Origin: Psilocybe azurescens
Taxonomy: Eukaryota; Basidiomycota; Agaricomycetes; Agaricales; Agrocybaceae
DNA: 64,000 bases
Reading direction: 5' to 3'
NCBI GenBank assembly: GCA_023853785.1
Contig: JAJIRX010000865.1
Location: 29,080-93,079, forward strand
A model generated the notes under the pieces. That model saw only the letters and a list, made by a program, of their open reading frames with translations. It had not been told where the DNA came from and made no database searches. A program made the position numbers and the translations under genes. This document shows, piece after piece, positions 36,561 through 59,730 of this stretch (the first letter of the stretch is position 1; each line of letters opens with the position of its first letter).

Positions 36561-36580
36561 ACTGCAGAACATCCGGTCGC

Positions 36581-36706
36581 CCGATCTACTTCCGGCCCCT
36601 ATTATGTAACTGGACCCGCAGCCACAACAGGCGCCTATACTTTCCGATCTACTTCCGGCCCCTATTATGTAACTGGACCCGAAGCCACAACAGGCGCCTA
36701 TACTTT
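36581..36706. repeat. 63-bp tandem duplication, near identical
   Basis: CCGATCTACTTCCGGCCCC... starts at 36581 and again at 36644. The two units differ at about one position (CCCGCAGCC versus CCCGAAGCC). It lies between the membrane gene and core1 of unit A. Confidence 0.85.
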
Positions 36707-36819
36707 CTTAAGCACCATTTAAAGTCCTGACATGTTATTTTTGACTGTACAGAACCGATGCTAACGGAATATGACCAACCCTTCGGTAAATCCCTATCAT
36801 CCCCATCATTTTTTCGCAT

Positions 36820-37979: not shown

Positions 37980-39297
37980 TCATGGCGTACTCTCCTCATC
38001 CTCATCTCTAACGAATCTCCGCGCCCCAACACCAACATCATCAATATCAACATCAACCGAGATAGGAATACCCATGCCCACATTGAGCGACTCAGAGGCG
38101 GAGGTGACGAACCCCTCGTAGAGGTATATGAGGCCGAAGAGGAGGAAGAGCGCGGAGCCGCCGTATGTTACTATTTGTGTCTTTGTATTGGAATTAGCTC
38201 TGTTTTCTATTTTTTTGAAAAGAGAGGGAAAGGGAGTGGGAGTGGGTGGGTGGTCGAGTCAGGGAGGGAGGGAGGAGGCGAGAAGGAGGGAGGAGGCGAG
38301 AAGGGAGGGAGGAGGCGAGAAGGGAGGAGGAGGCGAGAAGGGAGGAGGAGGCGAGAAGGGAGGGAGGAGGCGAGAAGGGAGGGAGGAGGCGAGAAGGGAG
38401 GGAGGAGGCGAGAAGGGGGAAGGAGTAGGGGAAAGGGAAAGGGAGAAAGAGACAAACACACCATGCTCGACCGATATTTTGGTCGACACGTACCTGCCGC
38501 CCACGACCGCGAGCGCGGTGCAGCACGCATGCCCAAGGACGGTGCTGAGTGTGACGAGGTATACGTTCTGCGGTGGCGATAGATAGATAGTGTTAGTACA
38601 CTTGGGAGGGGAAGAGGGAAGAAAGAAAGATGGACGTACGTGGGTGGCGCCGAGGGCGGTGGTGGCGATCTGGGAGCGGTCCCCCCACTCGCTGAGGAAG
38701 GTGAACTCAAAGGCCTGCACAAACACGGGCCCGAGGAACAGGCTGCAGAAGTTACGTGCGCCGTCTGTCCATGACGGTTTGGGTTTTAGTTTCTTTGGCG
38801 ATGATGTAGAGTCGCTGTCAATGTCGATGGCGATGTGGCTGTCGGTGTCGTTGCGTTTGCGGCCCTCCTCCATGCTGTATAGGGGGATTGCGTTCCCGTA
38901 GCCGAGGAGGGCGCGATGTCCGTGCTGAGCAGCCCGCCTTCGTGCACCTGCTCTTCATCCTCGATCTCATCCTCCGCCTCCCGAATCTCGTCCATCTTTC
39001 CTTCCCGCCCTCCGCCATGCCCTGCGCCTCGCCCAGCATCCTGACTCCAAACACCAAGAACAGGGCCGCAGCGTATCACTGGGTCCAGCGGCGCGGGATA
39101 AGGGTGGGGAAGACATGACCAAGGGAGGCGGAGTGGAAGGACATGAGGAGGAGCGAGAGGAATGCGCCGAGGAAGACGGTGAGCCGCGGGTGGCGTATGG
39201 CGAGGATGGCGGCGATGAGGATGGTCTTGCCACTGAGCTCGGAGATGATGATGATGAGGAAGAACCGGAAGAGGGCTTTGCGGGGAGAGGCATCCAT
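37980..39297 (-). pseudogene. GDT1-family paralogue, broken
   Basis: A full-length but damaged GDT1 gene on the minus strand. The start at 39297 gives MDASPRKALFRFFLIIII. The first signature reads SELSGKT instead of SE-x-GDKT, so the Gly-Asp pair needed for ion exchange is lost. At about 39076 the conserved Trp of RWTQW is TGA. A frame change follows before MDEIREAEDEIEDEEQ (acidic loop). The second signature, SEWGDRSQIATTA, is intact. It then has an intron, NVYLVTLSTVLGHACC, GGRYVSTKISVEH, a long intron filled by a G-rich minisatellite, and a last exon TYGGSALFLLFGLIYLYEGF ending near 37980. The tail ESLNVGMGIPI differs from the 19-kb copy, so this is a diverged paralogue. Its 3' part was copied to 40.9-42.3 kb and 55.0-55.8 kb. 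Confidence 0.8.
38256..38420 (+). repeat. Minisatellite GGGAGGGAGGAGGCGAGAA in a pseudogene intron
   Basis: About nine units of 18-21 bp built from GGGAGG(A/G)GGAGGCGAGAA. It lies in the last intron of the GDT1-like pseudogene, where it appears on the coding strand as a long pyrimidine tract. The G-runs could fold as G-quadruplexes. The equivalent intron near 55.7 kb has only short purine runs. Confidence 0.75.
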
Positions 39298-40914
39298 AGT
39301 TGTGCACTGTGCAGTGGAGTGGAGATGAGATGAGATGAGATGAGATGAGAAGACGTAAGACGTGTGGGTTGGCGGGGAGCGTTTGCCCTGGCAGCCTGCA
39401 CTGGATTAGGTTGAGTTGTTAAAATAAGACAGGCAGAATCGGAGCTGCATTTAGACGGAGTGTAAGGTTGTCAATGGACGTGGAGATCACGCTCGTTCGT
39501 TCGCTCACAAGAGGAAACGATCATGACCTGACGCGGGCCAAAAGCCTTCGCAACACGTGCCGCGGGAAAGTCCGATCACTTTCCTCATCGGGACACATTG
39601 GTTGTGGAACTGAGTCGTTCAATTGTTCAATCGTTTTGCGAGGTGTACAAGACAATTTATGCAGTATCGAAACACTCTAATGAAAAATCCCAGTAGAATA
39701 CAGTAGCCATACACTACAAATATCTATTTAAAAGGAAATGTACCCTGCTATTTGTAACTGAAGTCCAATAAATTTTCCCAAAATCAGATAATCAATTCAA
39801 TCCATCTCGTCAAGAAGTTGGTACCTCATGGTGTTTTCCCTCTTTCTCCTTTCTGTCTTAGATATTACATTTCACCCATGTTGTATCTGTTTTGTAGACA
39901 TCCCTTAGTTCTGTAATGTCTACCACAAAGGTAAGCTATCATTTCCTAGTCCTTGGTCAACCACAGATTTCAGCCAAATTGGCTTACTGATTGGTACTTG
40001 TGCACAAAAAGAAGTGAACTCCTCCCACACACACACACATTATTCAGTATATTCTCTCGATACATTTCTAACTAGAAACATAAGCTCAATTTAGCACGAG
40101 TAATTAATGATTTATTGAATACTCACTTCATCTTCATCGCCACTTCCATACTCAACAGATGAAGATGAGCAAGGAGTTTAATGCACTCCTGCATATCCAC
40201 ATTGTTAATTTCAAGCGGAAGAGATGATCTCAGCATGAGATCTATTATGATGATGTTTGGCATTAGTGGACTCTTTCTTTGAGGTTTGTGTTGACGGCAG
40301 CTGTTCTGTGAGCAGTTATACATAAACCAGAAAGAGGGTGTATTTTTATGCTTGAAGACACTGTGATATCTAATCAGATAATATCAGATAGCTTTGGATT
40401 TTTACAAACAGGAAGATGTAAAATATTTCTCACATAAATTGGTAGTTTAAGCACTCCCAAATTAACTTGACCGCCTTGTCTGCACATGATCCTGGGTTGC
40501 CATTGGAATGTTGAAGTGAAGATATATTCACTAGGACAGTAAAGGTGTGGGTATCCTCTGCTTCCAAAATCAAATTCAGAAGGGTTTACAAATCTACTTC
40601 AGTGATCTGGGATGCATCTTCATCCTCTTCCTCTCCGCCATCGTAAATTACTGAAATTTCCTTGTTAGTATTTTTCTTTGTGCTGACGAGTTTGAAACTT
40701 GCTTCAAGCATTCAAGGCATGCAGTTGTGAATCCATTGTTTTTTTTTAAAAAAAAATGTTTACATTCAACGGCTTTCATTGGCTCTACAAGGCTACCATA
40801 GTTCACAGTCACATTTATTTACAACAGGTTTACAGCACTTATATATAATTTGGACTCATTCAAAATTATTATACAGACGTATACCCCGTAACACTTGGCA
40901 CTTTACTCAGGCAC
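39298..40914. other. Intergenic, no clear gene
   Basis: A GATGAGATGAGATGAGATGAGA run lies just 5' of the GDT1-like start (39325-39349), and CACACACACAC at about 40028. A minus-strand frame at 40123-40323 (LPLEINNVDMQECIKLLAH) looks faintly protein-like but is unassigned. Confidence 0.4.
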
Positions 40915-40919
40915 TCATG

Positions 40920-41327
40920 CTGCACCACGCTCACGGTCATGGGCGGCCGGTACGTGTTGACCAAGATATCGGTCAAGCACGGTGCGTCTGTCTCCTTCTC
41001 CTCTTCCCCCTTTCCCCCGCTGTCTCCTTCTCCACCCTTACCCCTCTCCTTTTTCCTTCCCTTCTCCCCGACTCAACCACATAACCCCTCCCACAACCCC
41101 CTCCACCCTCAAGTTTCCTCTTTTTCAAAAAAAATCAAAAACTCGCTGCTAATTCCAATATAAACAAACAAATAGTAACATACGGCGGCTCCACGCTCTC
41201 CCCTTCTTCGGGCTCATATACCTCTACGAGGGGTTCGTCACCTTCACCTCCGAGTCGCTCAACATGGGCATGGGTATTCCTATCCCGGTTGATGTTGATG
41301 TTATTGATGTTGGTGTTGATATAGGGG
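40920..41327 (+). pseudogene. GDT1 3' fragment in copy B (penultimate and last exons)
   Basis: The penultimate-exon piece reads GGRYVLTKISVKH at about 40942-40980 and is followed by a GTGCGT donor and a pyrimidine-rich intron. After ATAG at about 41177 comes TYGGSTLSPFFGLIYLYEGF and SLNMGMGIPIPVDVDV. Relative to the 38-kb paralogue it is truncated upstream, so only the intron and the last quarter of the gene were copied. Confidence 0.7.
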
Positions 41328-41938
41328 TGTAAGGGTGCGTATCTTCGTACCCTTGGAAATGCGAACATCGGGATTCATGGAACCATCGGATGCAAGCGCC
41401 GCAACATTTGAAATCAACAAATATCACGTACCACAATGATCAGGGACTATCGCAGTTAAATTTCCAACAAATCATTTGTGTATCCAATAGCGAAAGGCAC
41501 AGTGTCAGGTCTACAATCACAAGCCTGGAGCTGTAACGATGGACGCCAGACTCGCCAAGGCCAACCGCAATGGTAAATTGTGCGCCGCACAACTTGGCGC
41601 GAGGCAAATTCCAGCCACCAATCGTAATCCGTACATATTATCTTTGCATCCCTTGGGCATGCAAATTGGGCAGGCGTGTCGGCCTTGGAAATTCACATGG
41701 TACGCAGTAATAGATAGAAATTTGATATTAATTCTGTACATATAAATAGAGGGAAGCTCTAAGAGTTTCCCAGTTGAATATACGCATTCCCTTCATCTCA
41801 GTTTCTTTCCGGCAGTCCTGACGTCCTTCCACACAAATTCTCAAGATTTATTTCTATTTCTACAACCTTCAGAACGAAGTAGATTAGATCTACTTCGCCC
41901 TCACCTCAACCGAACTCAGAGAGTTTTCTCTCACTTCA
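41328..41938. mobile_element. Solo LTR, 611 bp
   Basis: It starts TGTAAGGGTG and ends CTCACTTCA (TG...CA), and is flanked by GGGG at 41324-41327 and 41939-41942. It splits a GDT1/core2 sequence that is uninterrupted in unit A near 38023 (GTTGGTGTTGGGGCGCGG). A TATA-box-like TATAAATAGA is at about 41740, followed by a pyrimidine-rich leader, as in LTR promoters. No internal retrotransposon sequence is present, so it is a recombined solo LTR. The superfamily is undetermined. Confidence 0.55.
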
Positions 41939-42164
41939 GGGGCGCGGTGATTTGTTAGCGATGAAGAGAGATTACAGAGAGAGAAGGGAGCGGAGAGAAG
42001 AGGAGACACGGCAAAATGTATTTATTGTTGATGGCCGTTAGATGGTCTGCATATATTCACTCATGCATTCTCTCACTATCACTATTGCTGCTAGTGTAAC
42101 TCGCCGAGGCTGACTGTCCCGCAATGGCGATACTATACACATATACATACTCCCACTATCACCT

Positions 42165-42327
42165 GGACCGGCACGAAGCTATACCTCCACGGAGGGTTCG
42201 TTATGTTCGCCTCTGCCTCTGCCCCTGATTTGCTCATTCGCAATGTGGGGATAGGTATGGGTATTCCTGTTGTGGCTGACTCAGATGATGTTGATGTCGG
42301 GGTTGGGGTTGGGGTTGGTGTGCGGTG
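42165..42327 (+). pseudogene. Second GDT1 last-exon fragment in copy B
   Basis: Encodes a diverged version of the GDT1 C-terminus: LYLHGGFVMFASAS, then GIGMGIPVVADSDDVDVGVG and a stop. Compare LIYLYEGFVTSASES...GMGIPIPVDVD in the other copies. Only the last 50 or so codons are recognisable. Confidence 0.6.
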
Positions 42328-43706
42328 ATTTGTTAGAGTTAGAGTTAGCAACGGAGATGCGGATGGAGATGTGGATGAGGGTGCGAATGAAGATGCGGAG
42401 CGTACACTGTGATTACAGAGAGGGAAGGGAAGGGAGACAAGATATGTTTATCGCAAGTAGTTACTTAATGGCCGTTAGATGGCCTGAGTATGACCACTCT
42501 CTCACTATCACTACTAGTGAGTACATACACATTCTGGGATGAGAGAGAGAGACTACGCACCCGTGACTCAGCTCGCTCTACCGACGACGGTAGTTCAAGT
42601 TGCATAACTGTAAGTCGCCGAGGTCGATTGGCTCGCGATGGCGATATTACATAATATACTACCATTATCATTATACGGCGGGCAGCTAACCTCTGAACCG
42701 GGACACCCACTCGAGACAGAGAATTGATCTAGATTCTAAACCTACGCATAGAACTCTATGCCCGCGTATGCAACCATGGCGGGAAAAATCAAGATCGGCG
42801 AATCTGTATGAAGAGGTACTTATGACTATCTACCGGTTTGAACTTCATCAGCTCTCGCTCTGGGGGTAGTGATGACAGCTGCAGAGTAATAGCAGAGAGG
42901 AGCCGCGGTAAGCCCTATTCCGTATGAATGTTTAATGTTGAATACATATATCGTTGAATCGACCTACAGTGCACGAACTTTTAATTAGCTACACAGCCGT
43001 GGTATTTATACTAGCATACTAGCACCACTTCAATTCAGGGATGAGCGGGACGAATTATTCCTTAGCTCCATGTTATGAGATATATCATGAAGATGGTTCT
43101 GGTTCACGCACATGCACATGCCCACGCTGCTTGTTGCTTGTTGCAGTTCCGCCATGCCAACAGCTGCGGCGCAGTTGTCAAAAAGTCCCCCTGTCAAATA
43201 AGATCAGACTCCAAGTATCTTCATATTCGTATTCGTATTCCCCGCTCGTAAGCCGTGAGTCGTAGCCGTAAGTCATGCGCGACCTACCAGGGACCAGGAA
43301 ATCAGCGGTCTTGAGTCGATCACCACCACCAACACAGCAGCAGCAGCAGCAGAATGATTTGCATTGCAGTTACATAGAATTAGAGTTTGCGTTTGCATTG
43401 TCATTTTCGTTTGTGTTTGTGTTTGAGTTAGAGCATTTGTGTGTGCGTTTGCGTTCGTCACGCTGACCTGGACATCAGCAACTGCAACTGCAGCTATGCT
43501 AGACTTCTACCCCGCCTCTACCCTTGTAGAGTCTTCGCATTTGTGAGGGAAAAAAATGTTATGAAGGTTTTTTGCCATCATCAGCCAATCTGTAATCGCA
43601 AAACAAAGGGCGAAGAATGGATGGAGGATAGTACGGATATTCTTCGTGGTTTATTCCGTGAGTGTCGGTCCGTCACTGTCAAATCTAGACTGCACCTGAC
43701 CTAAAA

Positions 43707-44040
43707 AACTGGATACGAGCGTCTAAGTGCCCCTTGTATATTTAGACAGCACCTATTCAATTGTAGAAACTGGATACGAGCGTCTAAAATGCTTCTTGTG
43801 TCATTTAGACAGCATCTGACCCAAAAAAACTGGATACGAGCGTCTAAGTGCCACTTGTATATTTAGACAGCACCTATTCAATTGTAGAAACTGGATACGA
43901 GCGTCTAAAATGCCTCTTGTGTCATTTAGACAGCATCTGACCCCAAAAACTGGATACGAGCGTCTAAGTGCCCCTTGTATATTTAGACAGCACCTAGCCA
44001 ATTGTAGAAACTGGGTACCAGCCCCTGACAGAGGCATCTT
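43707..44040. repeat. Alternating 60-bp tandem repeat (121-bp higher-order period)
   Basis: AACTGGATACGAGCGTCTAA begins at 43707, 43768, 43828, 43889 and 43948, with a diverged copy at 44009. Units alternate between two types (GTGCCCCTTGTATATTTAGACAGCACC... and AATGCNTCTTGTGTCATTTAGACAGCATC...), giving a 121-bp super-repeat. It lies between core1 and the membrane gene in copy B. Confidence 0.85.
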
Positions 44041-44124
44041 GTGTTATTTGAAACTCACATACATATTCTCCTTAAGCAGCAGTGCAGTGTTATATTTGTG
44101 TCGGGATTGTTCCTATATGTTCTG

Positions 44125-47100
44125 CAGTTAAATAGCGATGTGTTCTTTTGGGTTAACGTCTCGTCAGCTTTATATCCCGGTGCTTGTTGCCCTCTTTCAT
44201 AGAACCAAGACAAGTATTCTCTCATTCCCAGTTCATGAGTAACATAGCTTCCCTGAGCAGTGATGGAGGACTTCCCGGGGCAGCATTAGAACCAAGGTCA
44301 GTAGTGCATTCCTGCTCATGTACACAGTAGCTCTTGAGTCGATATTTTGCCAGAGAGGACAATCCCAATTCCGGTTCAGATCGAACATTTTGGGGCCATC
44401 TTTCATTTTCATTGTATACTGCACTGTCCGTGGTGCATACTTTTGGCCTCCACCTTCTGCTCCATAAGTACATGGCTTATGCTGGGTCGCCTGTCGGAGG
44501 AATGTTCCCGATCGAGCTCAATGAAATTAGCCCCGTCCTCGTCAAGACGGTGAAGCCAACTTCGTGGCATATAACCCGGAGAACCAATCTCGAGAGCAGT
44601 GGGATGAGACCATGATTTGGTTGATCAAGGCATGGTCAATCACCTGTACTGCTCTAGGGGCCCCAGGAGGTCAGAAATTCCGCCTTCCAAAAAGGCAGAT
44701 TTTCTGACTCATTAAGGTGACAATTCCGCCACTGAGAGGCAGAAAGAAAGGGCGGAATGAGGTCGGAAATACATCCACGAAATTGAACGTTTCATACCCT
44801 TCCTTTTGGGACTGACCGTTGTAAGGAGTGAAATTTCCGAGCTTTAGAGATAAAAAAGCTAAAGCAAATGTCTTATTATATGATGTAAAAAGTCAAAAAT
44901 CACAACTCTATCGAAGGAAAGATAGACAGATTTTACCAATTTTATCGCACTTAAAGTACAGAAATTTATGATCCAACATGTATGGAAATCATATTTATTA
45001 ATGATATAATGACTATGAGATCTGGTCTTCACAGATCATCGAGATACATATCAGGATCAAATGGTACTACAAATTAAACACCCAAAGAAAAACTGCAACA
45101 ACCGGAAGCCAGAAGAACTTGCAAAGCAAAGGTGAGTAGAAGGAAAGCAAGATAGCACAATGACTTACATTTAATCTGTTGCATGTCAGCATTCCCCCGT
45201 CAGCGCCCTCGTATGGCTGCCCAGGCCACCGCTGCTTGTATTCACACATCACCATCCCTCCTCCAGCTTCTTCCACTTCCCCATCGGCATCATTTACATC
45301 GACTTCGGGCGCCCGTTTGAGAGTTTACCACGGAGGCGGAGTGTGAGTGCGAAGTGCTGGTGCGGGCTCAATGATACATGGGAATGTGAATGGGAGTGTG
45401 AAAGGCACTGACAAGGACAAAGAGAATGACAAAGACATAGAGAGAGACAAAGAGAGACAACTTACACCGCGCAAGACAATGTTCCAGCTCAGCAGGGATG
45501 ACGACAACAATGACAATGACGACTTCGTCTGTTGAGGAAGGGTGCCACGGGCACAACACCACGACGAAGGCAAAGTCAAAGCCGCTGCGTGACACTGACA
45601 GTATATTCTTCCGAGGACGAGGACGTGGACATCCTGCGCCTGGGCCTCCTGCCGCTGCTGCTTCACGCAAAGGCACCGTCGTTGTTTGACCAGCTGGGCG
45701 TGCCGTTCCCTCGCTTGTCACTGAGGGCAAGGCAGGAGGGCAAGGGGGTGGGACGGGCAGGTGGGGGAGTGTTGGGCGGAGTGCAAGTGCAGGTGCAGGG
45801 GGGCGCCCGGGTGGGAGAGCAGCAGGAGGTGGTGGGGCAACAGGAGGCTACCTGTTCCTGAAGGTTGCTGCTCCTGTGAGGAGGAGCTAGTCAAGTGCAG
45901 GGGGAGGAGGTGGCGACAGCAAGGACAGCAGAGGGCCAGCAGCATGCATTGCTGCTGGGCTGAGAACCGTTGAGTGCAGCAGAGGCAGCAAGAACGGCAC
46001 AGGCCCAGCAGCATCACATGCTGCTGGAAACTGAAACTGTTGAGTAGGGAGGGAGACGATGGTGCTGGTGAGAACGACGAAGGCCCTGTGGAAAATGGGC
46101 TATTATTGACGTGGAGCTTTTGCAGAGTTTGTGTAATAAATAAAGGATTTGCAAGAATGCAGAAATGTTGCGGAAAGGTACAGATAGAATATAGACTTTT
46201 TAGGCAGAATCACAACAGAATATCTTTTTGGACATAAATTTAACATGTATACAAAATTTCCACTGTTTTTAGTTAGAATATGATGGCGAATTTTTCATCC
46301 GAAATGCAACCTTTCTCCTGAGCCATATTTTGTACCTTAAACGTACATTTTGACATTCGGAATTTCAGCATTCAATTCATCCATTTTTAGATTCAGGACT
46401 TTAGGGGTGGAAATATCCGTTTCAGACATTTAAGGGTGGTTAAAAATGGAATTTCCGGCCCGATGGGGCTCATAGTGACTGGTTGCATTATTCTCCTTCC
46501 GTAAGAGTTGTAAATTCAATTCCTAACACTAGGAGACTGACTTATTATCTGACATAGATTTCCACTCAGTTTCTTTCAAATCCCAGGTATCAATGCAAAC
46601 ATATATGCGCGCACAGCAGTTCTATCTATGCTGATATGCTCAGCCATTGGTCTCATGATTGCTGGGTTCTACCTTCAGATGAAGCATAAATTCAAATCGG
46701 AAGGTTTTAACAAAGAATGGTTGAATGTCTGTGAAGCATACATATCATCACTTTCCAACGTCATCTTACTGTTAAACTACCATCAAGGCTTCCCGTGGTC
46801 TCAACAATCGAAATGCAATTGATTTCTGGATGTGCTTATGCCTCCCAGCTTCTCTACTTGCTTGGTAGGTTTTGTCCTTTGACTGGGGGTACTCAAGTAC
46901 TATCAGATGCTTACAACAATACGATATTAATAGGGCAATGTTCTTCTGTACTGTGGCTGTACTCACCATCGCAATGTGCAAAAATCCCACAAACGTAAAC
47001 GGAGTTCAATCCGAAGCGGGTACAAGCATGGCACATATCCAGCGTCATATTTCTGGTTATTCTGACTATCAGCCAAGTCGTGCAGGTATACCGCTTTGGA

Positions 47101-47270
47101 AAGCGCATTTTGAAGGCATAAACATCCTGATATTATTTTGTGTATTCCTAGATTACACTCAATTTCCCGATTCTTTCTGTAATCAGCTATTCTGGGGTGA
47201 ATGTTTTCCCATTGATGTCCCATGTCAAGTTCTGATGGTAGCCTATTTATATTTCCATTCGCTCAAGTAG
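44125..47270 (+). pseudogene. Membrane protein family member B, split by a transposon
   Basis: Plus-strand homologue of the gene at 35.3-36.6 kb. The 5' part (44125-44651) reads through RYFAREDNPNSGSDRTFWGHL and HKYMAYAGSPVGG. The transposon 44652-46477 then interrupts the codon stretch for ITCTG-CIILLP, and the remainder (46478-47270) continues with MLICSAIGLMIAGFYLQMK, LGRFCPLTGGT and MFFCTVAVLTIAMC. Further frame changes exist in both parts. Target duplication ACTG at both junctions. Confidence 0.65.
44652..46477. mobile_element. Non-autonomous TIR transposon, copy 2 (4-bp TSD)
   Basis: 1826 bp, flanked by ACTG at 44648-44651 and 46478-46481. Its ends are CTCTAGGGGCCCCAGGAGG and CCCGATGGGGCTCATAGTG. 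It shares long stretches with copy 1 (for example ATACATCCACGAAATTGAAC near 44770, and the last 400 bp) but differs in its middle (45190-45500). The empty site can be read from the intact membrane gene at about 36025-36040, confirming insertion into an exon. No transposase recognised. Confidence 0.75.
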
Positions 47271-47479
47271 TTGGTCTGACGTACCTAAACTAAACAAACA
47301 TTGCCTCCATTTCTCTCATTAAAGAGGTGTGTCAACAACGCAAAAGATCAGGACAAAGAGATTATAATGGTAGAAAGTAGTGGTGCAAGTCCAAGCTTTC
47401 TACACACCTCCAAAGCACCAATAATGCAATCAATCTTTGAGTATATATTTTCGTCGATGTTGACATCTCAGATGAGGGC

Positions 47480-49080
47480 AAAGGGAAAAAGCCGTGGCAG
47501 GGGCGTGTGGGGTGTGCTGGGGCGTGCAAGATGGGGCGTGCAAGATGGGGGCGTGCAGGCGTGCATATTCTGGTCGACGTATATCATGTACAGGTACATT
47601 TAATAGTCGTTAGGTGGTGTATACATGACTCCTTAGTCATAATTATCTCACTAGGAATGTGTGTGCGTCCAGCAAGTGTCTTTTAATAAAGTCGGTTGTA
47701 TGGTGTGACAGAGTAACATGTGACTTTTGCCTTGTAAATGTGTTTGACCCATATTCAACATACTTGGCTTGATGACCATTGCTTTGCATGGCGTAACGAG
47801 TCCTTTTGTGGGACTCATTTGAACCATCCTTGCTTACTTATGCTTATACTTTTAGCATCAAAAATTTATAATTACATATACTGAACAATTCATTATGCAC
47901 AATACCAAAAAATTGAGCAAAAGGAGCCATTTTACTATGTGGGGGCCAGATTTTTACCATCCTTCCTCACACTTTATGACCTCAAAAATTATAAGCTATA
48001 TAATGAATGACCTGCTATGCACAATGCAAAAACTGGAGAAAAGGGAGCTATTTTGTGCTGTCAGAGCCTGATTTTGCACTTTTTGGCACATTCATTACAA
48101 TATTTTGGCCCTTACATTGAACATAAAAATATAAAAATTCAGATTAATGTTCATATGAGCTGTCTAAATGAGAGTGCTAAAAATTAGATTTAACAAAGCT
48201 GCAGTTGCAAAGTTATAAATGAAAAGCATCAATTTACAAACACTGGTGATAGTACAATCAAAATGCTGGATGACAAATGCAATAGAATTCAGAATTCATG
48301 TCATGTTATCAAAGCGATGGAAGGAGTTGAGACTTGAGTGTGGTTCCACTTGCCCATCAAGTGTGGGAGATTGTGCCAAGTAAAACCAGGGCTTTGTAAG
48401 GCAAATAAAGCAAGAAAACTTAGGCAAAAATCATGTGCAGATTGCAATGAGTTTCCTTGATGAAGGACATGTGAGTACACCCAAATTTTTCTTCCTCAAA
48501 CCACCTCCTCAGGAGGAATCCATAAAATTGCACCCACTCACCTCCCGGTTATATTAGAATTTTCCTAATACTTTCAGTGTGTGTCTGTGTGTAGATACTT
48601 AAAGGTCTCCTTCTAGCCTCTTACTAGTGAGTCAACTACACTACAACACATGCTCAAGGTGACTATATAGGCTAACCACAACATAACACGTCTGGCTTCT
48701 TGTCTCAACTTCAAGTGGCGTAGAATCACGTGACCTGAACCCCTATGTAGTCACTTTCACCCAACCACACGGAATCACGAGATTCTGCCTCCTCAAATCA
48801 TCTGACTTGCTTGAAAGCTCTAGACTTGCTGATTACAAAGTGCATCATTCAGCAAAAATAACTCAGGAGAAGCCAGTTTTACAAAAGCAATTCACGTTCA
48901 CATCACGTTATTAAAGACAAAATAGGAAATATATTTGCACAAAGATAGATTCTTGACATTGCACCCTCGCTGGGTCCCTGTGTAAAAGAACAAGTTTTTA
49001 CTTATGTAAAGGACTCATAACATCAAATGCAAGAAGGTGGCCGGCGAATGCAATGGTGACCCAACTTTGAACCACCCTAT
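47480..49080. other. Spacer at the centre of a large inverted repeat
   Basis: Separates arm B (ending about 47475) from arm C (starting about 49080). AT-rich. It holds a G-rich GGGGCGTGCAAGATGG duplication at about 47517-47560 and a rough 120-bp duplication near 47880-48080. No gene found. Confidence 0.45.
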
Positions 49081-50396
49081 TAATCTCTTTGTGCTGATCT
49101 TTTGCATTGTCGACTAACCTCTTTAATAAAATGTTAGCAGGCAATGTTTTTAGTTTAAGTACATCAGAAAAACTACAAACAAACAGAAATATAAATAGGC
49201 TACCATCAGGACTTGACATGGGACATCAATGGGAAAAAATTAAACACAGAATAGTTGATTACAGAAAGAAATGGGAATTTGAGTGTGATCTCAGAATACA
49301 CGAAATAATATCAGGATCTTTATGCCTCCAGAATGCGCTTTCCAAAGCGGTATACCTGAGTAACTTGGCCAACAGTCATAATAGCCGGAAATATGACGCT
49401 CGATATTTGCCATGCTTGTACTCGTTTCTGATTGAACTCCATTTTGTTCGTGGGATTTACGCACATTGCGATGGTGAGCAAAGTCACAATACAGAAGAAC
49501 ATCGCCCTATTCATATTGTATCGTTGTAAGCATCCGATAGTGCTTGAGTATGCCCAGTCACGGGGCAAAACTCACCAGGCAAATAGAGAAGCTGGGAGGC
49601 ATAGACATGTCCAGAATTCAACTGCATCTCGATTGTTGAGACCGCGGGAAGCCTTAATGGTAGTTTAAAAGTAAGATGATGTTTGAAAGTGACGATATAC
49701 TTCACTGACCCTCAACCATTCTTTAATGAAACACTCCGATTTGAATTTATGCTTCATCTGAAGGTAGAACCCAGCAATCATGAGACCAATAGCGGCGCAT
49801 ATCAGCACAGATAGAACTGCTGTGCGCGCATATATGTTTGCATTGATACCTAGGATTTGAAAGAAACTGAGTGGAAATCTATGTCAGATAATAAATTAAT
49901 TTTCTAGTGTTAGGGTCTGAATTTACAGCTCTTACAGAAGGAGAATAATGCAACCAGTGCAGGTGATTGACCATGCCTTGATCAACGAAATCATGGTCTC
50001 ATCCCACTTCTCGCAAGATCGGTTCTCTGAGTTGTGTGCTGCGAAGTTGGCTTCACAGTCTTGACGAGGATGACAGTTAATTTCATTGAGCCCAATCGGG
50101 AAATTTCTCCGATAGGCGACTTGCCATAAGCCATATATCTATGGAGTAGAATGTGGAGGCCAAAGTATGCACCACTGCCAGTGCAGCATACAACGAAAAT
50201 GAAAGATGACCCCAAAGGTCCGTTCTGACTCGAAATTGAGATTTTCGTTTCTAGTAAAATATCAACTCAAGAGGTACTGTGTAGTTGATCAGGAATGCGC
50301 TGCTGACCTCGATTCTCGTGTTGCCCTGGGTTCTTCATCACTGCTCAGGGAAGCTGTGGAACTCATAAACTGGGAGTGAATGAGGTCTTTACACGG

Positions 50397-50690
50397 CCCC
50401 CATTTTTGGTCGGACTCCGGTCGGACTCCGTTGGACTTTCTATATTCAGAATGACAATTTTTCTGGCCTAGGACTGCTGAAATTTTCTGGTGAGATTCCG
50501 GTGAGATTCCGGTGAAAGTCCGACTGGACTACAAGTCCAACGGACTGTCCGGGCGGACTGTCCACTGGAAATGACCGGACAGGACCAACGGAAGTCCAAT
50601 GGAAGTCCATCGGAATCCCACCGGACATGACCATTGGAATTCCAGCGGACAAGTCCAACAGAATTCCAATGGAAGTCCAACGGATGTCCT
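50397..50690. repeat. Left subterminal TCCRAYGGA array of the 3-kb element
   Basis: Many copies of GTCCAACGGAAGTCC-like strings (TCCAACGGA, TCCAATGGA, TCCATCGGA, TCCACTGGA), mostly self-complementary cores spaced by 10-20 bp. A matching array lies at 53095-53415. Such arrays often bind a transposase; that is inferred here. Confidence 0.65.
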
Positions 50691-50721
50691 TTTATTATAA
50701 TTTATACTAGTATAGAAAAAA

Positions 50722-50800
50722 AAGACACTAACGAGAATTGAACTCGGGCATTGGAGAATGCCGAACGCAAGCAGGATAAACCAACTGAGCCACAAAGGCT
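50722..50800 (-). other. tRNA-like sequence, probably a pseudogene or SINE head
   Basis: On the minus strand GGCTCAGTTGGTTTA (A-box-like) is followed by a T-arm-like CGAG-TTCAATT-CTCG. The outer ends do not pair as an acceptor stem and the anticodon loop lacks U33, so an intact tRNA is not supported. Confidence 0.3.
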
Positions 50801-50998
50801 TATGAAAAATAATAAAATTAGTTAAATAGATAGTGATGCGGCCGAAATTCTCGGCACTGCTCAGCACGGGACAAACAACAATGCAGCGTGTGACATGTTG
50901 ATGCCACGTCGGTCCATTGTTGATTCCGACCCCAACCCTTTTTCCTTCCACCACCACCACCGCCTCGTTGGTCGGAGCCAGGCGAGAGCCAACCCGAC

Positions 50999-52260
50999 AT
51001 GACAGAGGACGAGAACGACCACGATGGCCACACCGGCGAGGACGAGGACCACGACGAGGACCGCGAGGGGCGAGGGGCGAGGGCGAGGGCGAGGACCGCG
51101 AGGACCACAGCTAGGACCACAGCTAGGACCACGACCATGACGGTGAGGACCAAGACACCGGCGTGGACCAGGACAAGGGCGAGGACAGCGGCGAGAGCAA
51201 GGACAGCAGCGAGGACGAGGACAGCGGCGAGGGCGAGGATGACGGCGAAGGCAGTACAGCGGCGGGGACGAGGGCGAGGGCAAGGGCAAGTATGGCAGCG
51301 AGGACGAGGACAGCGGCGAGGGCAAGTACAGCGGCGGGGACGAGGACAACGGCAAGGGCAAGTACAGCGGCGAGGGCAAGTTCAGCGGCGAGGGCAAGTA
51401 CAGCGGCAAGAGCAAGTACAGCGGCAAGAGCAAGTACAGCGGCAAGGGCAAGTACAGCGGCAAGAGCAAGTACAGCGGCAAGAGCAAGTACAGCGGCAAG
51501 GGCAAGTACAGCGGCAAGAGCAAGTACAGCGGCAAGAGCAAGTACAGCGGCAAGAGCAAGTACAGCGGCAAGAGCAAGTACAGCGGCAAGAGCAAGTACA
51601 GCGGCAAGAGCAAGTACAGCGGCAAGAGCAAGTACAGCGGCGGGGGGGCGAGAGACGACGGCGAGGGCAAGTACAGCAGCGAGGACGAGGACGGCAGCGA
51701 GGACAAGTACGGCAGCGAGGACGAGAACGACGGCGAGGGCGAGTACGGCGGCGGGGACGAGGACGACGGCGAGGGCAAGTCACGGCAGCAAGGACGAGGA
51801 CGGCAGCAAGGGCAAGTACAGCGGCGGGGACGAGGATGACGGCGAGGGCAAGTATCGGCGGCGAGGGCAAGTACAGCAGCGAGGGCAAGTACAGCAGCGA
51901 GGGCAAGTACAGCAGCGAGGGCAAGTACAGCAGCGAGGGCAAGTACAGCAGCGAGGGCAAGTACAGCAGCGAGGGCAAGTACAGCAGCGAGGGCAAGTAC
52001 AGCAGCGAGGGGCGAGTACAGCAGCGAGGACGAGGACAGCGGCGAGGGCAAGTACGGCAGCGGGGACAAGGATGACGGCGAGGGCAAGTACGGGCGGCAG
52101 GGAGAGGACGACGGCAAGGGCGAGTACAGCGGCGGGGACAAGGACGAGGGGCGAGGGTGAGTACAGCAGCAAGGACGTGGATGGCGAGGACAAGGACGTG
52201 GACGTGGACAGCGAGGACAGCGAGGGCGAGGACAAGGACAACCCGCGACGATGGCACCGA
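50999..52260 (+). CDS. Low-complexity repeat ORF in the 3-kb element (frame uncertain)
   Basis: All three plus frames stay open for long stretches because the DNA is an 18-bp-type repeat. The most protein-like reading is acidic and Gly/Ser/Lys/Tyr-rich: MTEDENDHDGHTGEDEDHDE at the start, GEDSGESKDSSEDEDSGEGE near 51180, and repeated GKYSGKS or GKYSSE units in the arrays. Reading it through requires frame changes near 51090 and 51255. The alternatives are RASTAA or QVQRQE repeats. Whether it is translated is unknown. Confidence 0.3.
51394..51640 (+). repeat. 18-bp tandem repeat, AGTACAGCGGCAAGAGCA type
   Basis: About 14 near-perfect copies of CAAGTACAGCGGCAAGAG, some with GGGC instead of GAGC. 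Repeats in multiples of three bases keep all frames open. Confidence 0.9.
51864..52010 (+). repeat. 18-bp tandem repeat, GAGGGCAAGTACAGCAGC type
   Basis: Eight near-perfect copies of the same 18-bp family in a slightly different variant, about 220 bp downstream of the first array. Confidence 0.9.
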
Positions 52261-53025
52261 CAGATACCACCACGGCGACGACAACACGCTGACGATGACA
52301 CCGACACAACGACAACACCGACACATACCACAACAGGTACAGACTGCGACGACCCGCGACAAAGGGACCGACGGGTGCCAGGAGAGGCACAGTGGACGAC
52401 GACACCGACCACGTACCACAACGGGTACGGACTGTGACGACGTGTACCACCACGGCGACAGCAAGGACGACAGGGACGACCACAACACGCCGACGACAGC
52501 AGCAACACATACCACAACACGTACAGACAACAGCGACACGTACCACAACACGTACAGACGACACCGACGATGATACTGACGCGTACCATGGCAGGTACGG
52601 CTGACGACAACACCCGACGGCAACACCGACGCATATAACAACGGGTATGGCTGACCACGACATCAATAACGCAGATGACGACACCACCAATATACCCTAC
52701 GCCCCCCTTTTTCCGTTCTTTCTTTCTGTTTTTCTTTTTTGTTTCTTTTTTATTATGTTTTTATTTTATTTTTACCTGTATATAATCATGTAGTATATAG
52801 TTTTTAATATATTATATTACATTGTCACATAAATTTAAGCTAAGATTAAAGTATTCCAGTTGGAATCCAATTGGATTCCATTCCATGTGAATTTAAAGTT
52901 GGACTTAGTGAAATTCACAAAGTCAGATAATAATGTAGTATATAGTTTACAATATATTATATTACATTGTTACATGAATTAAAGATAAGATTGAAGTATT
53001 ATTCTAGTGACCTAGCTTCCTTAAT

Positions 53026-53178
53026 ATGGCTCCCAAAGCTTCCAAGAACACTGCTACTGTCCCTAACTCCCCTCCCAAGTTTGCAATTGAACCAGCGACA
53101 GTCCACTGGACATCCACTGGACATCCACTGGACTCCACTGGACAGAGCACTCTTGGATCTGGTCTAATTAAGTGCTGA
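53026..53178 (+). CDS. Short ORF with a transposon-protein-like start
   Basis: ATG at 53026 reads MAPKASKNTATVPNSPPKF and then runs into the repeat array (HWTSTGHPLDST). Basic Pro/Lys/Ser starts like this are common in fungal transposon-encoded Myb/SANT-like proteins, but no domain follows. It could be an orphan first exon of the element's lost gene. Confidence 0.25.
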   Translation: MAPKASKNTATVPNSPPKFAIEPATVHWTSTGHPLDSTGQSTLGSGLIKC

Positions 53179-53415
53179 GAGTCCAGTGGAAGTCCAGTGG
53201 AAGTCCAACGGAAGTCCAACGGACTGGACAGTCCGGCCAGTCCACCTGTTTTCTGTCTTGAAGTGACTTGACCGGACTTTGACCGGAATTTGGCCGGACT
53301 CTGACTGGACTGGTACCGAATTTTGTCAAGTCCAATGGAATCCGTTGGACATCCAATGGACTGTCCATTGGAATTGGCTGGGTCCGGTGAAAGTCCGTTG
53401 GAGTCCAACGGAATA
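53095..53415. repeat. Right subterminal TCCRAYGGA array of the 3-kb element
   Basis: Same short strings as at 50397-50690 (TCCACTGGA, TCCAACGGA, TCCAATGGA), ending at the right terminal inverted repeat. Confidence 0.65.
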
Positions 53416-53929
53416 TGGGGGCACTGTAAAGTACATGAGTGAATGAGAGCGTAACTGGAGGAGGTTTGTGTTAGTTCTACGAAAGAGGGCAAAGAGAGTG
53501 GGATATGAAACTGACAAGACGTTAGCCCAGCAGAAGACATCGCTATTTAACTGCAGATCATCTGGGGACATTACTGAAAATAGAAACCGTACCACGAGTT
53601 AATACCAATATATTAAGCTTGGACATTACACAACCTTAACAGAATTACAACCAAGGCATTCTCCGAATCTCTACTAAACATTTAGAAACCTCGCTATGCC
53701 GGTACCTGGCATGCTCTATAATGAGCAATGCTCGGCGCTTTCAAAGTTCTCAAGGAGTGACATCAAAAAACCAGCGGATTACGTGGGCTTAGACATTTTG
53801 CCATCCGCATTAGAGAGGCCCAAGGGAGCAAGCTCCCCAATAACACACAGTCCATAATCGAAGACACGACCGAGTTGAACCCCACGAAGAGTCTCCATGC
53901 TATCCCCTATCCGTTCTCTGCCCTCTGTT

Positions 53930-55330
53930 GGTGATTCCTGATTGGCTGATAATGGCAAAAGACCTTTATATGACATAGTTTTCCGTCATAAATTCGATGA
54001 CTCTATATGGGCAACGACGGGGAAGACGTCTAGCGCAGTCTAAGCCACAGTTTGCTAATAGCGGTTTCAGGACTTGGTGAACGCAAACGCACACACAAAC
54101 TCTAACTGAAATACAAAGGTAAACGAAATGGACAACGCAAACGCAAACTCCGACTCTATGTAACTGCAACGCAAATGCTGTGGGGATCGACTCAAGATCG
54201 CTGATTTCCTGGTCCCTGGTGGGTCACGCACGACGCACGACTCTAGAGCGGAGAAAATGCATACGAATACGAAGGATACTTGGAGACTGATCTTGTTCGA
54301 CTGAGGACTTTAACTTCTGCGGTACTACTCTACCGGCTATTGGCATGCCAGTGGTGGTCAGCTAAGAACAGAGCATCTGTTGAACGCTTTGCCCTGATGA
54401 TTCCCTGAATTGAAGTGGTGCTACTATGCTGATATATATATACCACGGCTGTGTAATTAAAAAAACGAACTCACCGCAGTCGTTTGATAGTAAACTAATA
54501 CAGCGATGTGTGCATTCGACATTCATGCAGCATGGCGCTTGCCTCTTCCGCCTGCTATCCCACTGCGGCTGTCATCCGAACTATGTACCCCGAAAGCGAG
54601 AGCTGACGAAGTTTGAACCGGTAGATAATCATAAGTACCTCCTCACCGATGGTTACATACACGTGTATGGGCTTCTGCGCGTTGGTTTAGAATCTAGATT
54701 GATTCTCGGTCCGGAGCGGGCGTCCTGGTCCAGGGCTGGCTGCCCGCTGAGTGTTAATGATAATGGTAATGGTAATATACTATATAGTATAGTATCGCCA
54801 TCGCGAGCCAATCGACCAAGGGGAGTTAGAGTTGTGCAACTTGAATTACCGTCGCCGGTGGAGCGAGCTGAGTCACGGGTGCGTAGTCTCTCTCTATCGT
54901 CCCAGAATGCGTATGTATGTATTAGCAGTGATAGTAGCAGAGTGCACATACTCAGGCCGTCTAACGGCCATTGAGTAACTACTTGCGATAAATATATCTG
55001 GTCATATCTCCCTTGTCTCTCTGTAATCGTAATTACGGTGGGCGCACTCTCCTCTCATCATCCTCATCTCTAACAATCGCTAACAAAGACAAAATAAAAC
55101 ACTGCACCTCAATGCCAGCACTAGCATCATCTACATCAATTGGAATAGGAATACCTACCCATAGCCATCCCCACGTTGAGAGTGAAACTACAATCGCCGG
55201 TGGAGAGCTGAGTCACGAGTGCGTAGTCAATCTCGAATCTCGAGTCCCAGAAAGCACTAGTAGTGATAGCGATAGACACATCACATATACAAGCCATCTA
55301 ACGTTCATCTAACGGCCATCAACAATAAAT
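53930..55330 (+). repeat. Dispersed repeat unit copy C (core1, core2, GDT1 piece, core2)
   Basis: Core1 starts at about 53940 (GATTGGCTGATAATGG) and runs past ATGCTGATATATATATACCACGG (about 54427). Core2 is about 54680-55020 (CGCGAGCCAATCGACC, TCTAACGGCCATTGAGTAA). A short GDT1 tail remnant follows (about 55030-55200), then another core2 piece to 55330. It matches copy B inverted. Confidence 0.6.
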
Positions 55331-55790
55331 ATATTTTGTCGTGTCTCCTCTCCTCTCCTCTCCTCTCGCTGTAATCATAATCATGTATCACGGTGTACCC
55401 TCCTCTCCTCATCGTTAACAATAACAAATCACCGCGCCGAGCACCAACACCAACCCCAACACCACCATCATCTACATCCACCGGGATAGGAATACCCATC
55501 CCCACGTTGAGCGACTCAGAGGCGGAGGTGACGAACCCCTCGTAGAGGTATATGAGGCCGAAGAGGAGGAAGAGCGCGGAGCCGCCGTATGTCACTGGTT
55601 GTTCATATTGGAATTAGCTCTATTTTCGATTTCTTTTTTGAAAGAGAGGGAGAGGGAGTGTGTGTGTGTGTGAGGGATTGAGTCGGAGAGAGAGGAGGGG
55701 AGTAGAGGTAGAGGAAGGGGAAAGGAAGGAGGGAGAAGGAGGAAACGCACCATGCTTGACCGATATCTTCGTCGACACGTACCGGCCCCT
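55305..55790 (-). pseudogene. GDT1 3' fragment in copy C
   Basis: The minus strand encodes part of the penultimate exon (YVSTKISVKH, about 55760-55788), an intron with GTGCGT donor and AG acceptor, then TYGGSALFLLFGLIYLYEGF, SASESLNVGMGIPIPVDVDD and a long read-through tail ending at 55305. The first 3/4 of the gene is absent: upstream the sequence switches to core1 at about 55800. Same breakpoint type as in copy B. Confidence 0.72.
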
Positions 55791-55814
55791 GACATCCGTT
55801 CTTCTTCGCCCTTC

Positions 55815-56340
55815 TTTTGTGATTGATGATTCGCTGATGATATCCAAAGAACTTCATGACATTATTATCCGTCAAAAATACGAAGCAGTTGCAGTTGCTG
55901 TGGCCGCAGTGGCGGTGGTGGTGGTGGCTGGTCAGTTCAGAATCGGGCAAATGCGAATGCACACGCAAATGCAAACGCAGACGCTGTTGCTATGGTGGGG
56001 TGGTGGTCGAATCCGAGTCGGTGTTTAGCGAGGAGCACGACTACGGATACGGATATGGATACTTGGAGTCTAATATTATTCTATTTCATCCAGGGACCTT
56101 TTAATAACTGCCGAATACTGTATCTACTACAAGTGCGGCTCGGCTCGGCTACTAGGATACTGTAATAAGTAACAAGTAACATGAGCATGAGCATGAACAT
56201 GAGCATTTGCAAAAACAGTGACAAGAAACGGAGTTCATACCACATTTGAGCTAGGAATGATTCATCCCGCTGATCACTTGAAGTGAAATGGTGCTAGTAC
56301 GCTAGTATAATTACCATGGCTGTGCAGGGAATACGCGAAT
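55815..56340 (+). repeat. Extra core1 block after copy C
   Basis: Matches 36820-37330: GATTGATGATTCGCTGATG, GAAGCAGTTGCAGTTGCTG and GCTCGGCTCGGCTACT occur in the same order. It directly follows the GDT1 fragment, so units are partly in tandem. Confidence 0.65.
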
Positions 56341-56679
56341 ACAAAGTACCTGTTGATTCAACTCGAATCACCTAAGGGTCCCACACTACCCCGATACTTA
56401 TCAGGCATGACCGGATCGGTATCCGCCGGTTAATTTACAATGAAACCTTTCATTTCTCTTACCCTCCAGCAATTTGTTCAATACCTCTGGACTCCATTGA
56501 AGATATCGAACATCCGGCTACTTCAAAACTAGTCCCGGCATCGGTCCCGGCATCGCAGACCTGGCGGCTGTTCCCAAGGCCTGTATAGTTGACACCACGC
56601 CTCCTAGCCACTGTGGCTGTTTCCGCAAACTGCACAGCCGTTGTTCCCTTGTCACACCTCGTCCCGCCGCTGCCCTCCC

Positions 56680-57440
56680 GTTGCCATCCCGCTGTTGCCA
56701 TCCCGCTGTTGCCCTCGCTGCCCACCCGCCGCTGCCCTCCCGCTGCCCTCCCTCCGCTGCCCTCTCGCTGCCCTCTCTCCGCTACCTCTCGCTGCCCTCC
56801 CGCCGCTGCCCTACCGTTGCCATCCCGCCGTTGCCCTCGCTGCCCACCCGCCGCTGCCCTCTCGCTGCCCTCCCTCCGCTGCCCTCTCGCTGCCCTCCCT
56901 CCGCTGCCCTCTCGCTGCCCTCCCTCCGCTGCCCTCTCGCTGCCCTCCCTCCGCTGCCATCCCGCTTGCCCTCGCTGCCATCCCGCCGTTGCCCTCGCTG
57001 CCATCCCACCGTTGCCCTCGCTGCCCACCCGCCGCTGCCCTCCCGCTACCCTCCCTCCGCTACCCTCTCGCTGCCCTCCCTCCGCTTACCCTCTCGCTGC
57101 CCTCCCTCCGCTACCCTCTCGCTGCCCTCCCGCCGCTGCCCTCCCGTTGCCATCCCGCTGTTGCCATCCCGCCGTTGCCCTCGCTGCCCACCCGCCGCTG
57201 CCCTCTCGCTGCCCACCCGCCGCTGCCCTCTCGCTGCCCTCTCGCTGCCCTCCCGCTGCTGCCCTCCCGTTGCCATCCCACTGTTGCCATCCCGCCGTTG
57301 CCCTCGCTGCCCACCCGCCGCTGCCCTCTCGCTGCCCTCTCGCTGCCCTCCTCCGCTGCCCTCTCGCTGCCCTCCCTCCGCTGCCCTCCCGCTGCTGCCC
57401 TCCCGCTGCTGCCCTCCCGCTGCTGCCCTCCCGCCCCCGC
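56680..57440. repeat. GC-rich pyrimidine repeat (CTGCCCTCCCG/CTGCCCTCTCG)
   Basis: About 760 bp of diverged short repeats built from GCTGCCCTC(C/T)CGCTGCC and CGTTGCCATCCCG. All plus frames and two minus frames stay open for 75-370 codons (for example Pro/Ser/Cys-rich plus; Gly/Gln/Arg/Glu-rich minus), which is a composition effect. The surrounding sequence (56600-56680, 57440-57700) has the same bias and no domain. Confidence 0.75.
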
Positions 57441-58220
57441 CCTGCCCTTCCGCTGCACCACCTTCAGGGCCCTCCTGCTACCGTCCCACTGCTACCGCCC
57501 CCGTTGCTGCCCTTCCGCCCTCCGCCCTGTCCCTTCTGCTGCGCCATCTTCAGTGCGCCTTGTCGCTACTCTGATTTCCTCACCCTGTCTACCGTCCCTT
57601 ACCCTGACGGACTTGTTCTTGCGGCTGCCCAGACAGCTTCCGCCCTTGCCTCAACACTACTTGGTCGCTTAACATCTCATAGGTATTTCTTGACTGTAAA
57701 CAACAGTTAACCTAGCTAATATTACTATAGAATACCGCTCTCGACCCCTTATTCCATAAATGGCCCTCACGGTCTGCGGGTTCTAGCTCTAGTTCTTCCT
57801 TTCCCCAACGCAGTTCCCTGAGTTCCCTCTTGCACACCCTCATTTCTACACAATATGCCCAAGGCGCTCGACTCTCAAATGGCTTACACACGTTCTTGTA
57901 AGTGTTCCTTTCTTTGCGAAGTTTCATGCTTACTGTCACCTCAGCAAGCGCTTTGATTTGAGAACGCGCATCACAATCGAGTACAAAAGGATAGACATGG
58001 ACTCTTCAAGTCATACCATTCTCATGTAAGTTTCTGCCGTCGATTTCCTGTTTCGTTCTCTAACCATAACTTTGACCAGATTTTGGCTCTTGTACCTTCG
58101 ACTATATTGATGACGTTTCCTACACCAACGTGTCTCTAGTTTGTCACGAATATCTGGATGCCTCAGAACTTTATATATATGACTGCATGTGCCCAAGTGA
58201 ATTGACATTAGAACTACTTA
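57441..58220. other. Flank, no supported gene
   Basis: A 75-codon minus frame at 57712-57939 (WAYCVEMRVCKRELREL) looks mildly protein-like but is unassigned and short. Confidence 0.35.
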
Positions 58221-59720: not shown

Positions 59721-59730
59721 AAAATTGAGT

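What the first reader, a model, noticed from the sequence alone, without database searches (positions are those of the whole stretch)
40900..56350. Large inverted repeat around 48.2 kb with a third direct copy at 35-39 kb
The order membrane gene - core1 - core2 - GDT1 3' piece is present at 35.0-39.3 kb (unit A), inverted at 47.5-40.9 kb (unit B) and direct at 49.0-56.3 kb (unit C). B and C face each other across a 1.6-kb spacer, an arm length of several kb. Such a palindrome-like structure is a known source of instability, and the unit has no recognised transposon ends of its own.
Basis: seen in the sequence. Interest (0 to 1): 0.75.

Follow-up and report, generated by a model that had tools for sequence, protein, structure and literature searches.

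The report
Flipped unit in mushroom gene array
In a Psilocybe-like mushroom, a membrane-protein gene and a decayed metal-transporter gene are repeated side by side several times, and one repeat has been turned around, so that two old, imperfect copies face each other across an inserted mobile element; it is mostly an ordinary gene array.

Summary
Three diverged copies of one unit are present: A (33.94-39.55 kb), B (inverted, 40.88-47.47 kb) and C (49.08-55.79 kb), with the membrane gene (MEM) 86-87% identical between them. This is best read as one flipped member of a tandem array of MEM plus a GDT1 cation-antiporter gene, not as a palindrome or a mobile unit.

The apparent other haplotype (contig C123) carries 7 MEM copies in one orientation and C510 carries 3 in one orientation. 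B is the only flipped one of these 13 array copies. B and C are not sister copies, which argues against a recent inverted duplication and against an assembly fold-back.

The left junction lies within 40865-40876. The 1.6-kb spacer is almost all dispersed repeat. Transposon-like inserts break both arms, and a KDZ transposon begins at 56368 and runs off the contig; C509 carries its other side.

None of 11 readable array GDT1 copies is intact; the gene at 19 kb is. MEM shows purifying selection in 6 open copies but is broken in all three window units. Instability is plausible but should be weak at this divergence and spacing. No reads were available.

The parts
18995..19858 (+). GDT1 gene (first long open frame) in the array's left flank; looks intact
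   Evidence: PF01169 120.5 bits; both ExGD motifs in frame here and in the C123 counterpart, 94% protein identity
33344..33440 (-). Short remnant of the MEM gene just outside the array
   Evidence: 88.5% to 36252-36347, 84.5% to 50176-50272
33943..39546 (+). Unit A, a complete array unit (MEM 3' flank, MEM, spacer, GDT1); its genes are on the minus strand
   Evidence: Unit-unit joins on C510 at 14469/14511 and 24141/24139; end at 39546 from C123 and C510 matches
35395..36441 (-). MEM gene of unit A, five exons, frame broken in exon 3 (start read by eye, end approximate)
   Evidence: Splice-site columns shared in an alignment of 20 rows
38000..39297 (-). GDT1 gene of unit A, decayed: motif-1 aspartate lost and a stop inside (limits approximate)
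   Evidence: PF01169 53.8 bits on a piece; SELSGKT; 1 TGA inside
40865..40876 (.). Left inversion junction: to the left collinear with C123, to the right inverted unit B
   Evidence: Match to C123 44866-44784 ends at window 40864; B homology starts at 40877
40877..47469 (-). Unit B, inverted and truncated (GDT1 3' piece, spacer, MEM with an insert)
40877..41326 (+). GDT1 3' piece of unit B
44652..46477 (+). Dispersed transposon-like insert in the MEM gene of B; ACTG on both sides (4-5 bp duplication)
   Evidence: Near-complete copies on C480, C19 and C1, and pieces elsewhere (40 of 59 candidates scored); ends
47475..49021 (+). Dispersed repeat filling the spacer between B and C
   Evidence: 18 other near-complete copies of its core at 91-95%, the longer form on C569 (40 of 162 candidates scored)
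49078..55793 (+). Unit C (MEM, insert, spacer, GDT1 3' piece)
50384..53436 (+). High-copy DNA-transposon-like insert in C, ends good to a few bases; GAGTGAATGA on both sides (8-10 bp duplication)
   Evidence: Copies with the same ends (40 of 812 candidates scored); ends
55794..56367 (+). Start of a further unit (D), spacer only, cut by the KDZ element
   Evidence: 55802-56367 is 93.5% to C123 29907-29342; C509 continues from 8598
56368..64000 (-). Left 7.6 kb of an 11.4-11.6 kb KDZ transposon with about 1.4-kb inverted end repeats; the contig ends inside it

Best explanation
The window holds the left end of a tandem array in a Psilocybe-like mushroom. The array unit is about 5.6 kb in its simplest form and consists of an orphan multi-pass membrane gene (MEM) and a GDT1 antiporter gene. 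Unequal exchange between units changes the number of copies. One unit (B) was inverted in the haplotype seen here: its left junction falls in 40865-40876, its right end abuts a dispersed repeat, and its GDT1 lost its 5' part at the junction. Transposons settled in the decaying units. Shown by the sequence: the units, their orientation, the left junction, the inserts, the order on C123 and C510, and GDT1 decay. Inferred: that C123 is the other nucleus's haplotype, that unequal exchange made the copies, that B was flipped in place by break repair rather than by recombination between inverted repeats, and the time order of flip and inserts.
For: A DNA search found MEM in arrays: 7 copies of at least 1 kb on C123, all on one strand; 3 on C510, all on one strand; 3 in the window; 6 and a part on C92 (counts are lower bounds). 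C510 14.6-50 kb lines up with C123 36-3.6 kb in blocks at 91-98%. Window 18.7-33.4 kb lines up with C123 90-77 kb at 89.5-95.7%, and window 1-9000 with C123 100.5-109.2 kb at 95-99%. Units abut head to tail on C510. The 13 array copies form an open star in which B and C are not sisters. Left junction resolved to 12 bases. Inserts and spacer are dispersed repeats. C744 and C509 flank one KDZ insertion whose empty site is in C123.
Against: No reads were available, so the junctions rest on one assembly. The haplotype reading is not proven: an RNA-polymerase family check hit 5 contigs, which fits neither one nor two full haplotypes cleanly, and A is only 90.7% identical to its best C123 match while two C123/C510 pairs are about 98 and 99.8% by branch length. 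No inverted repeat pair was found at the two ends of the inversion at E<=1e-5, so its mechanism is not shown. The C92 array also changes strand (3 against 4 copies), so flips are not unique to this haplotype.
Confidence: 0.85

Rival explanations
1. A recent inverted duplication: B was copied from C, or C from B, giving a true palindrome with a spacer.
For: B and C face each other and share the unit order.
Against: B/C identity in MEM is 86.2%, lower than that of B to 8 of the 11 other array copies and of C to all 11 (best B to C123_64k 87.4%, best C to C510_28k 89.3%); B and C are not sisters in the tree, though the star is unresolved.
Confidence: 0.05
2. Assembly artefact: a fold-back join or chimeric contig made the inverted order.
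For: No reads; the contig ends 16 kb further on inside a repeat that is up to 99% identical elsewhere.
Against: A fold-back would give near-identical arms, but these are about 86% identical and carry different inserts. At the left junction the sequence passes from C123-like flank into B within 12 bases.
Confidence: 0.06
3. The MEM-GDT1 unit is itself a mobile element that inserts in either direction.
For: Many copies on several contigs; MEM copies on C92 in both orientations.
Against: The 26 matched places lie on 4 contigs in clusters, not dispersed. C92 copies share MEM and short flanks, not spacer or GDT1. No transposase domain was found in the MEM and GDT1 frames scanned. Short terminal repeats at the unit ends were not searched beyond the self-BLAST.
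Confidence: 0.04

Closest known systems
Tandem multigene arrays changed by unequal crossing-over (general knowledge, recalled)
   Same: Head-to-tail units, copy-number difference between contigs read as haplotypes, broken copies among open ones
   Different: Unit pairs an orphan membrane gene with a decaying GDT1; one unit is inverted and several carry transposons
Inverted repeats tested for fragility in yeast (PMC10164571; abstract and results section 19 read)
   Same: 86% identity and a spacer near 1.5 kb are among the values tested there
   Different: Those were Alu copies. In wild type, 86% identity cut rearrangements about 58-fold (12-bp spacer) and a 1.5-kb spacer about 31-fold; here the arms are also interrupted by inserts.
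KDZ (Kyakuja-Dileera-Zisupton) transposons, PF18758
   Same: The element at the right end of the window has KDZ domain pieces in its C128 copy
   Different: It interrupts the array; it does not explain the inverted units
GDT1 divalent cation/proton antiporters, PF01169
   Same: Array copies and the flank gene match PF01169
   Different: Array copies read here have lost motif residues or frames; the flank gene has not

Membership tests
Tandem gene array | Several homologous units head-to-tail at one locus | tested here: met
   C510 units join at 14469/14511 and 24141/24139; C123 has 7 MEM copies on one strand
Tandem gene array | Copy number differs between haplotypes | tested here: inconclusive
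   C123 has 7 MEM copies, C744 plus C510 have 6; the stretch between C509 and C510 is not closed and haplotype status is inferred
Palindrome / long inverted repeat | Continuous, near-identical arms | tested here: not met
   About 86% at best over the long blocks, longest exact B/C match 56 bases, inserts in both arms
Palindrome / long inverted repeat | Arms are each other's closest relatives | tested here: not met
   Identity table and tree of 19 copies; star unresolved
Mobile element (the unit itself) | Dispersed single copies with target duplications | tested here: not met
   26 places on 4 contigs, clustered (lower bound); unit limits lie at unit-unit joins on C510. Target duplications were not searched for.
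Mobile element (the unit itself) | Short terminal inverted repeats at the unit ends | not tested
   Only the self-BLAST at E<=1e-5
GDT1 family (flank gene) | PF01169 domain and two ExGD-K/R-T/S motifs in an open frame (motif recalled) | tested here: met
   120.5 bits; SEIGDKT and GEWGDRS
GDT1 family (array copies, as working genes) | Both motifs complete in one open frame | tested here: not met
   0 of 11 readable array copies; motif-1 aspartate lost in 8 of 11, and in the C509 copy, not counted there. Exons were not modelled in full.
Known membrane-protein family for MEM | A convincing Pfam or PDB sequence match | tested here: not met
   Best Pfam E-value among 6 members 0.003 (DUF2298, 1 of 6); best PDB E-value 0.32
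KDZ transposon (right-end element) | KDZ transposase domain | tested here: met
   PF18758 in 4 of 5 pieces of the C128 copy, 3 over the cut-off, best 102.4 bits; that part lies outside the window
KDZ transposon (right-end element) | Terminal inverted repeats and target duplication | tested here: met
   Inverted end repeats on C128, C38 and C169; CTCGAA at both joins and once in C123. Whether 6 bp is usual for KDZ was not checked.

The most novel reading that the evidence does not exclude
MEM is an orphan membrane-protein family, found in these searches only in Psilocybe cyanescens and this genome, that is kept in fast-changing arrays because diversity and copy number between nuclei matter, for example in recognition between nuclei or strains; GDT1 is a hitch-hiker, and inversion locks some units out of exchange.
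Probability: 0.08. Interest if true: 0.6.

Novelty: new member of a known kind. Interest (0 to 1): 0.3.

Why it matters
It shows how one locus in a mushroom can change between haplotypes: an orphan membrane gene amplifies, a neighbouring ion-transporter gene is copied along and decays, one unit flips, and transposons fill the gaps. It corrects a tempting reading of a palindrome and shows where the assembly breaks and how it continues. The array gives a test of whether inverted units stop exchanging with their neighbours.

Tried and rejected
Inverted duplication (disfavoured by identities and tree). Fold-back assembly artefact (disfavoured by divergence and by the junction). A mobile unit (copies clustered). 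A known RNA at the repeated right end: no Rfam family reached its cut-off in 33000-64000; no tRNA in the window. A known family for MEM: weak Pfam matches only, no protein outside P. cyanescens at E<=0.001 in two searches that need shared short words, no credible PDB match. A structure model of P0002 was too poor to use (mean pLDDT 50), so no fold search was run. An apparent swapped order in C was explained by a further unit starting at 55794. Literature: P. cyanescens genome haplotypes (2 listed), arrays in dikaryons (4 listed), GDT1 with tandem and basidiomycete (0 papers) gave no listing on this locus.

Not settled: the superfamily of the inserts in B and C, the exact ends of the spacer repeat, and which inserts came before the flip.
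Full report
What was checked. Self-comparison of the window confirms three copies of one unit: A in direct order, B inverted and C direct. Over the MEM gene the three are 86.2-87.3% identical; smaller blocks of spacer and GDT1 are 69-88% identical. B against C covers 3097 of 6610 bases at E<=1e-5; in 20 of 20 two-base-block shuffles nothing matched, and nothing matched in the wrong orientation. It needs corrections: A starts at 33943, both arms are interrupted, A's spacer is shorter and only weakly like those of B and C, and C ends at 55793.

Where it lies. The window is part of contig C744 (93,079 bases) of a 70.4-Mb assembly in 937 contigs, and its right end is the contig end. A MEM protein matched five proteins at E<=0.001, all P. 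cyanescens (the same five with a profile). The search finds only relatives that share short words. The organism is taken to be Psilocybe, close to P. cyanescens (inference).

The unit. An alignment of 20 rows (19 genomic copies and B) supports a five-exon gene with splice sites in common columns. Under this model 6 of 20 rows stay open (L004, L007, L012, L014, L016, L019; four of these run on past the modelled stop); the other 14, with all three window copies, do not. In the 15 pairs among the 6 open copies dN/dS is 0.24-0.41, so MEM has been under purifying selection there. A hydropathy scan of the 6 gives 5 hydrophobic segments in 5 of them and 6 in one. The best Pfam E-value among 6 members of an alignment is 0.003 (DUF2298, 1 of 6), the best PDB E-value 0.32, and a structure model was too poor to use (mean pLDDT 50). 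Distant relatives (28-42% identity in short stretches) lie on other contigs, several in clusters, such as C171, C299, C453 and C138.

The arrays. A DNA search with the MEM region finds 26 places on four contigs, a lower bound. C123 has 7 copies of at least 1 kb and two fragments, all on one strand; C510 has 3 and one fragment, all on one strand; the window has A, C, B in two pieces and one fragment; C92 has 6 copies of at least 1 kb, 1 partial and 1 fragment, with 3 of the 7 larger ones on one strand and 4 on the other. On C510 whole units abut head to tail (matches under 150 bases dropped). C510 14.6-50 kb lines up with C123 36-3.6 kb in blocks at 91-98%, with unmatched stretches between them, and window 18.7-33.4 kb lines up with C123 90-77 kb at 89.5-95.7% (matches under 250 bases or up to 88% identity dropped). 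Window 1-9000 has one long counterpart, C123 100.5-109.2 kb (9.0-18.7 kb was not tested). The simplest reading is that C744 and C510 belong to one haplotype and C123 to the other. A check with an RNA-polymerase family hit 5 contigs and does not settle this. The C92 copies share MEM and short flanks with unit A, without spacer or GDT1, so MEM is the common core.

The inverted unit. In a maximum-likelihood tree of 19 copies (the partial C92 copy L020 left out), the 13 array copies form a star that is mostly unresolved. B and C are not sisters; B is closest in identity to C123_64k (87.4%) and C to C510_28k (89.3%), while B to C is 86.2%. Two pairs, C123_31k/C510_18k and C123_15k/C510_28k, have full support and look allelic. 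The sequence left of B stays collinear with C123, with a gap of about 0.23 kb on the C123 side, up to window 40864; B homology starts at 40877 inside GDT1, so the left junction is within 12 bases. On the right, B homology ends near 47469, a dispersed repeat fills 47475-49021 (18 other near-complete copies of its core at 91-95% among 40 of 162 candidates scored), and C starts at 49078. No pair of inverted repeats was seen at the two ends at E<=1e-5, so recombination between such repeats is not supported; break repair is inferred. In C123 a GDT1 5' piece of about 0.64 kb is also inverted in place (53870-54506). Its breakpoint corresponds to A 38630, C's truncation to A 38498 and B's to about A 38570 (estimated through C123). 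The area may be break-prone, but three cases prove nothing.

The inserts. In B, 44652-46477 is a dispersed element with near-complete copies on C480 (96%), C19 (93%) and C1 (93%) and pieces in many other places (40 of 59 candidates scored); ACTG flanks it on both sides. Related copies at 22871-25077 in the window and at C123 82560-84381 sit at different sites in the two contigs. In C, about 50384-53436 is a high-copy element (40 of 812 candidates scored) with short inverted ends and GAGTGAATGA on both sides. Neither was assigned to a superfamily.

The right end. The stretch 56368-64000 is the left part of an 11.4-11.6 kb element with inverted end repeats of about 1.4 kb, seen from end to end on C128, C38 and C169. 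The inside is 99% identical in most other copies (96-97% in parts of C429 and C508), the end repeats 86-93%. Five pieces of the part outside the window (C128 copy) were scanned apart: 4 of 5 match the KDZ transposase family, 3 over the cut-off, the best at 102.4 bits. Window 55802-56367 matches C123 29907-29342, and C509 from 8598 matches C123 from 29348; CTCGAA stands at both joins and once in C123. C744's last 5 kb also matches C509's first 5,024 bases at 99%. C509 is therefore read as the continuation of C744, and 55794-56367 begins a further unit D.

GDT1. The genome search finds PF01169 matches on C744, C123, C510 and C509 only. The flank gene at 19 kb and its C123 counterpart have both ExGD motifs in frame. 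Among 11 array copies in which motif 1 can be read (alleles counted apart), 8 have lost its aspartate, and none of the 11 has both complete motifs in one open frame. The C509 copy, not among the 11, is array-like, has lost it too and is broken; B, C and the copy at C123 74.5 kb lack a readable motif 1. So GDT1 in the array looks like a decaying passenger; full exon models for each copy were not made.

Instability. In wild-type yeast, inverted Alu repeats at 86% identity gave about 58-fold fewer rearrangements than identical ones, and a 1.5-kb spacer about 31-fold fewer than a 12-base one; both matter far less in long single-stranded DNA (PMC10164571, abstract and results section 19 read). Here the arms are in addition interrupted. 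Instability of B/C as a palindrome is therefore expected to be low, while exchange between same-direction units is the likelier driver of change (inference).

Verdict. The finding is real and one junction is mapped to 12 bases. It is an ordinary kind of structure, a flipped unit in a gene array, with an orphan membrane gene as its most interesting part. Of the other papers I saw search listings with starts of abstracts and passages of PMC8220353; none of what I saw bears on this locus.

Noticed in passing
56368-64000: Left part of an 11.4-11.6 kb KDZ transposon, 99% identical inside to most other copies; the contig ends inside it and C509 carries the other side.
   Followed up: yes
22871-25077: Related copy of the insert found in B; C123 lacks it here and has a copy at a different site (C123 82560-84381).
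   Followed up: partly
L020 (C92:110619-111301): A partial MEM piece in the C92 array is closer to unit A (82-83%) than its C92 neighbours are (76-78%), suggesting exchange between the two arrays.
   Followed up: no
38265-38425: G-rich 19-base repeat (AGGGAGGGAGGAGGCGAGA) in GDT1 of unit A, near the places where GDT1 is broken in B, C and C123.
   Followed up: no
28964-30167: Open frames with a fungal cellulose-binding domain (PF00734) and an esterase domain (PF10503) in the left flank, perhaps one secreted esterase gene.
   Followed up: no
L043, L044, L045: Distant relatives of MEM (35-42%) on C626, C171 and C299; C171 and C299 hold several, so the orphan family is larger than the two arrays.
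   Followed up: partly
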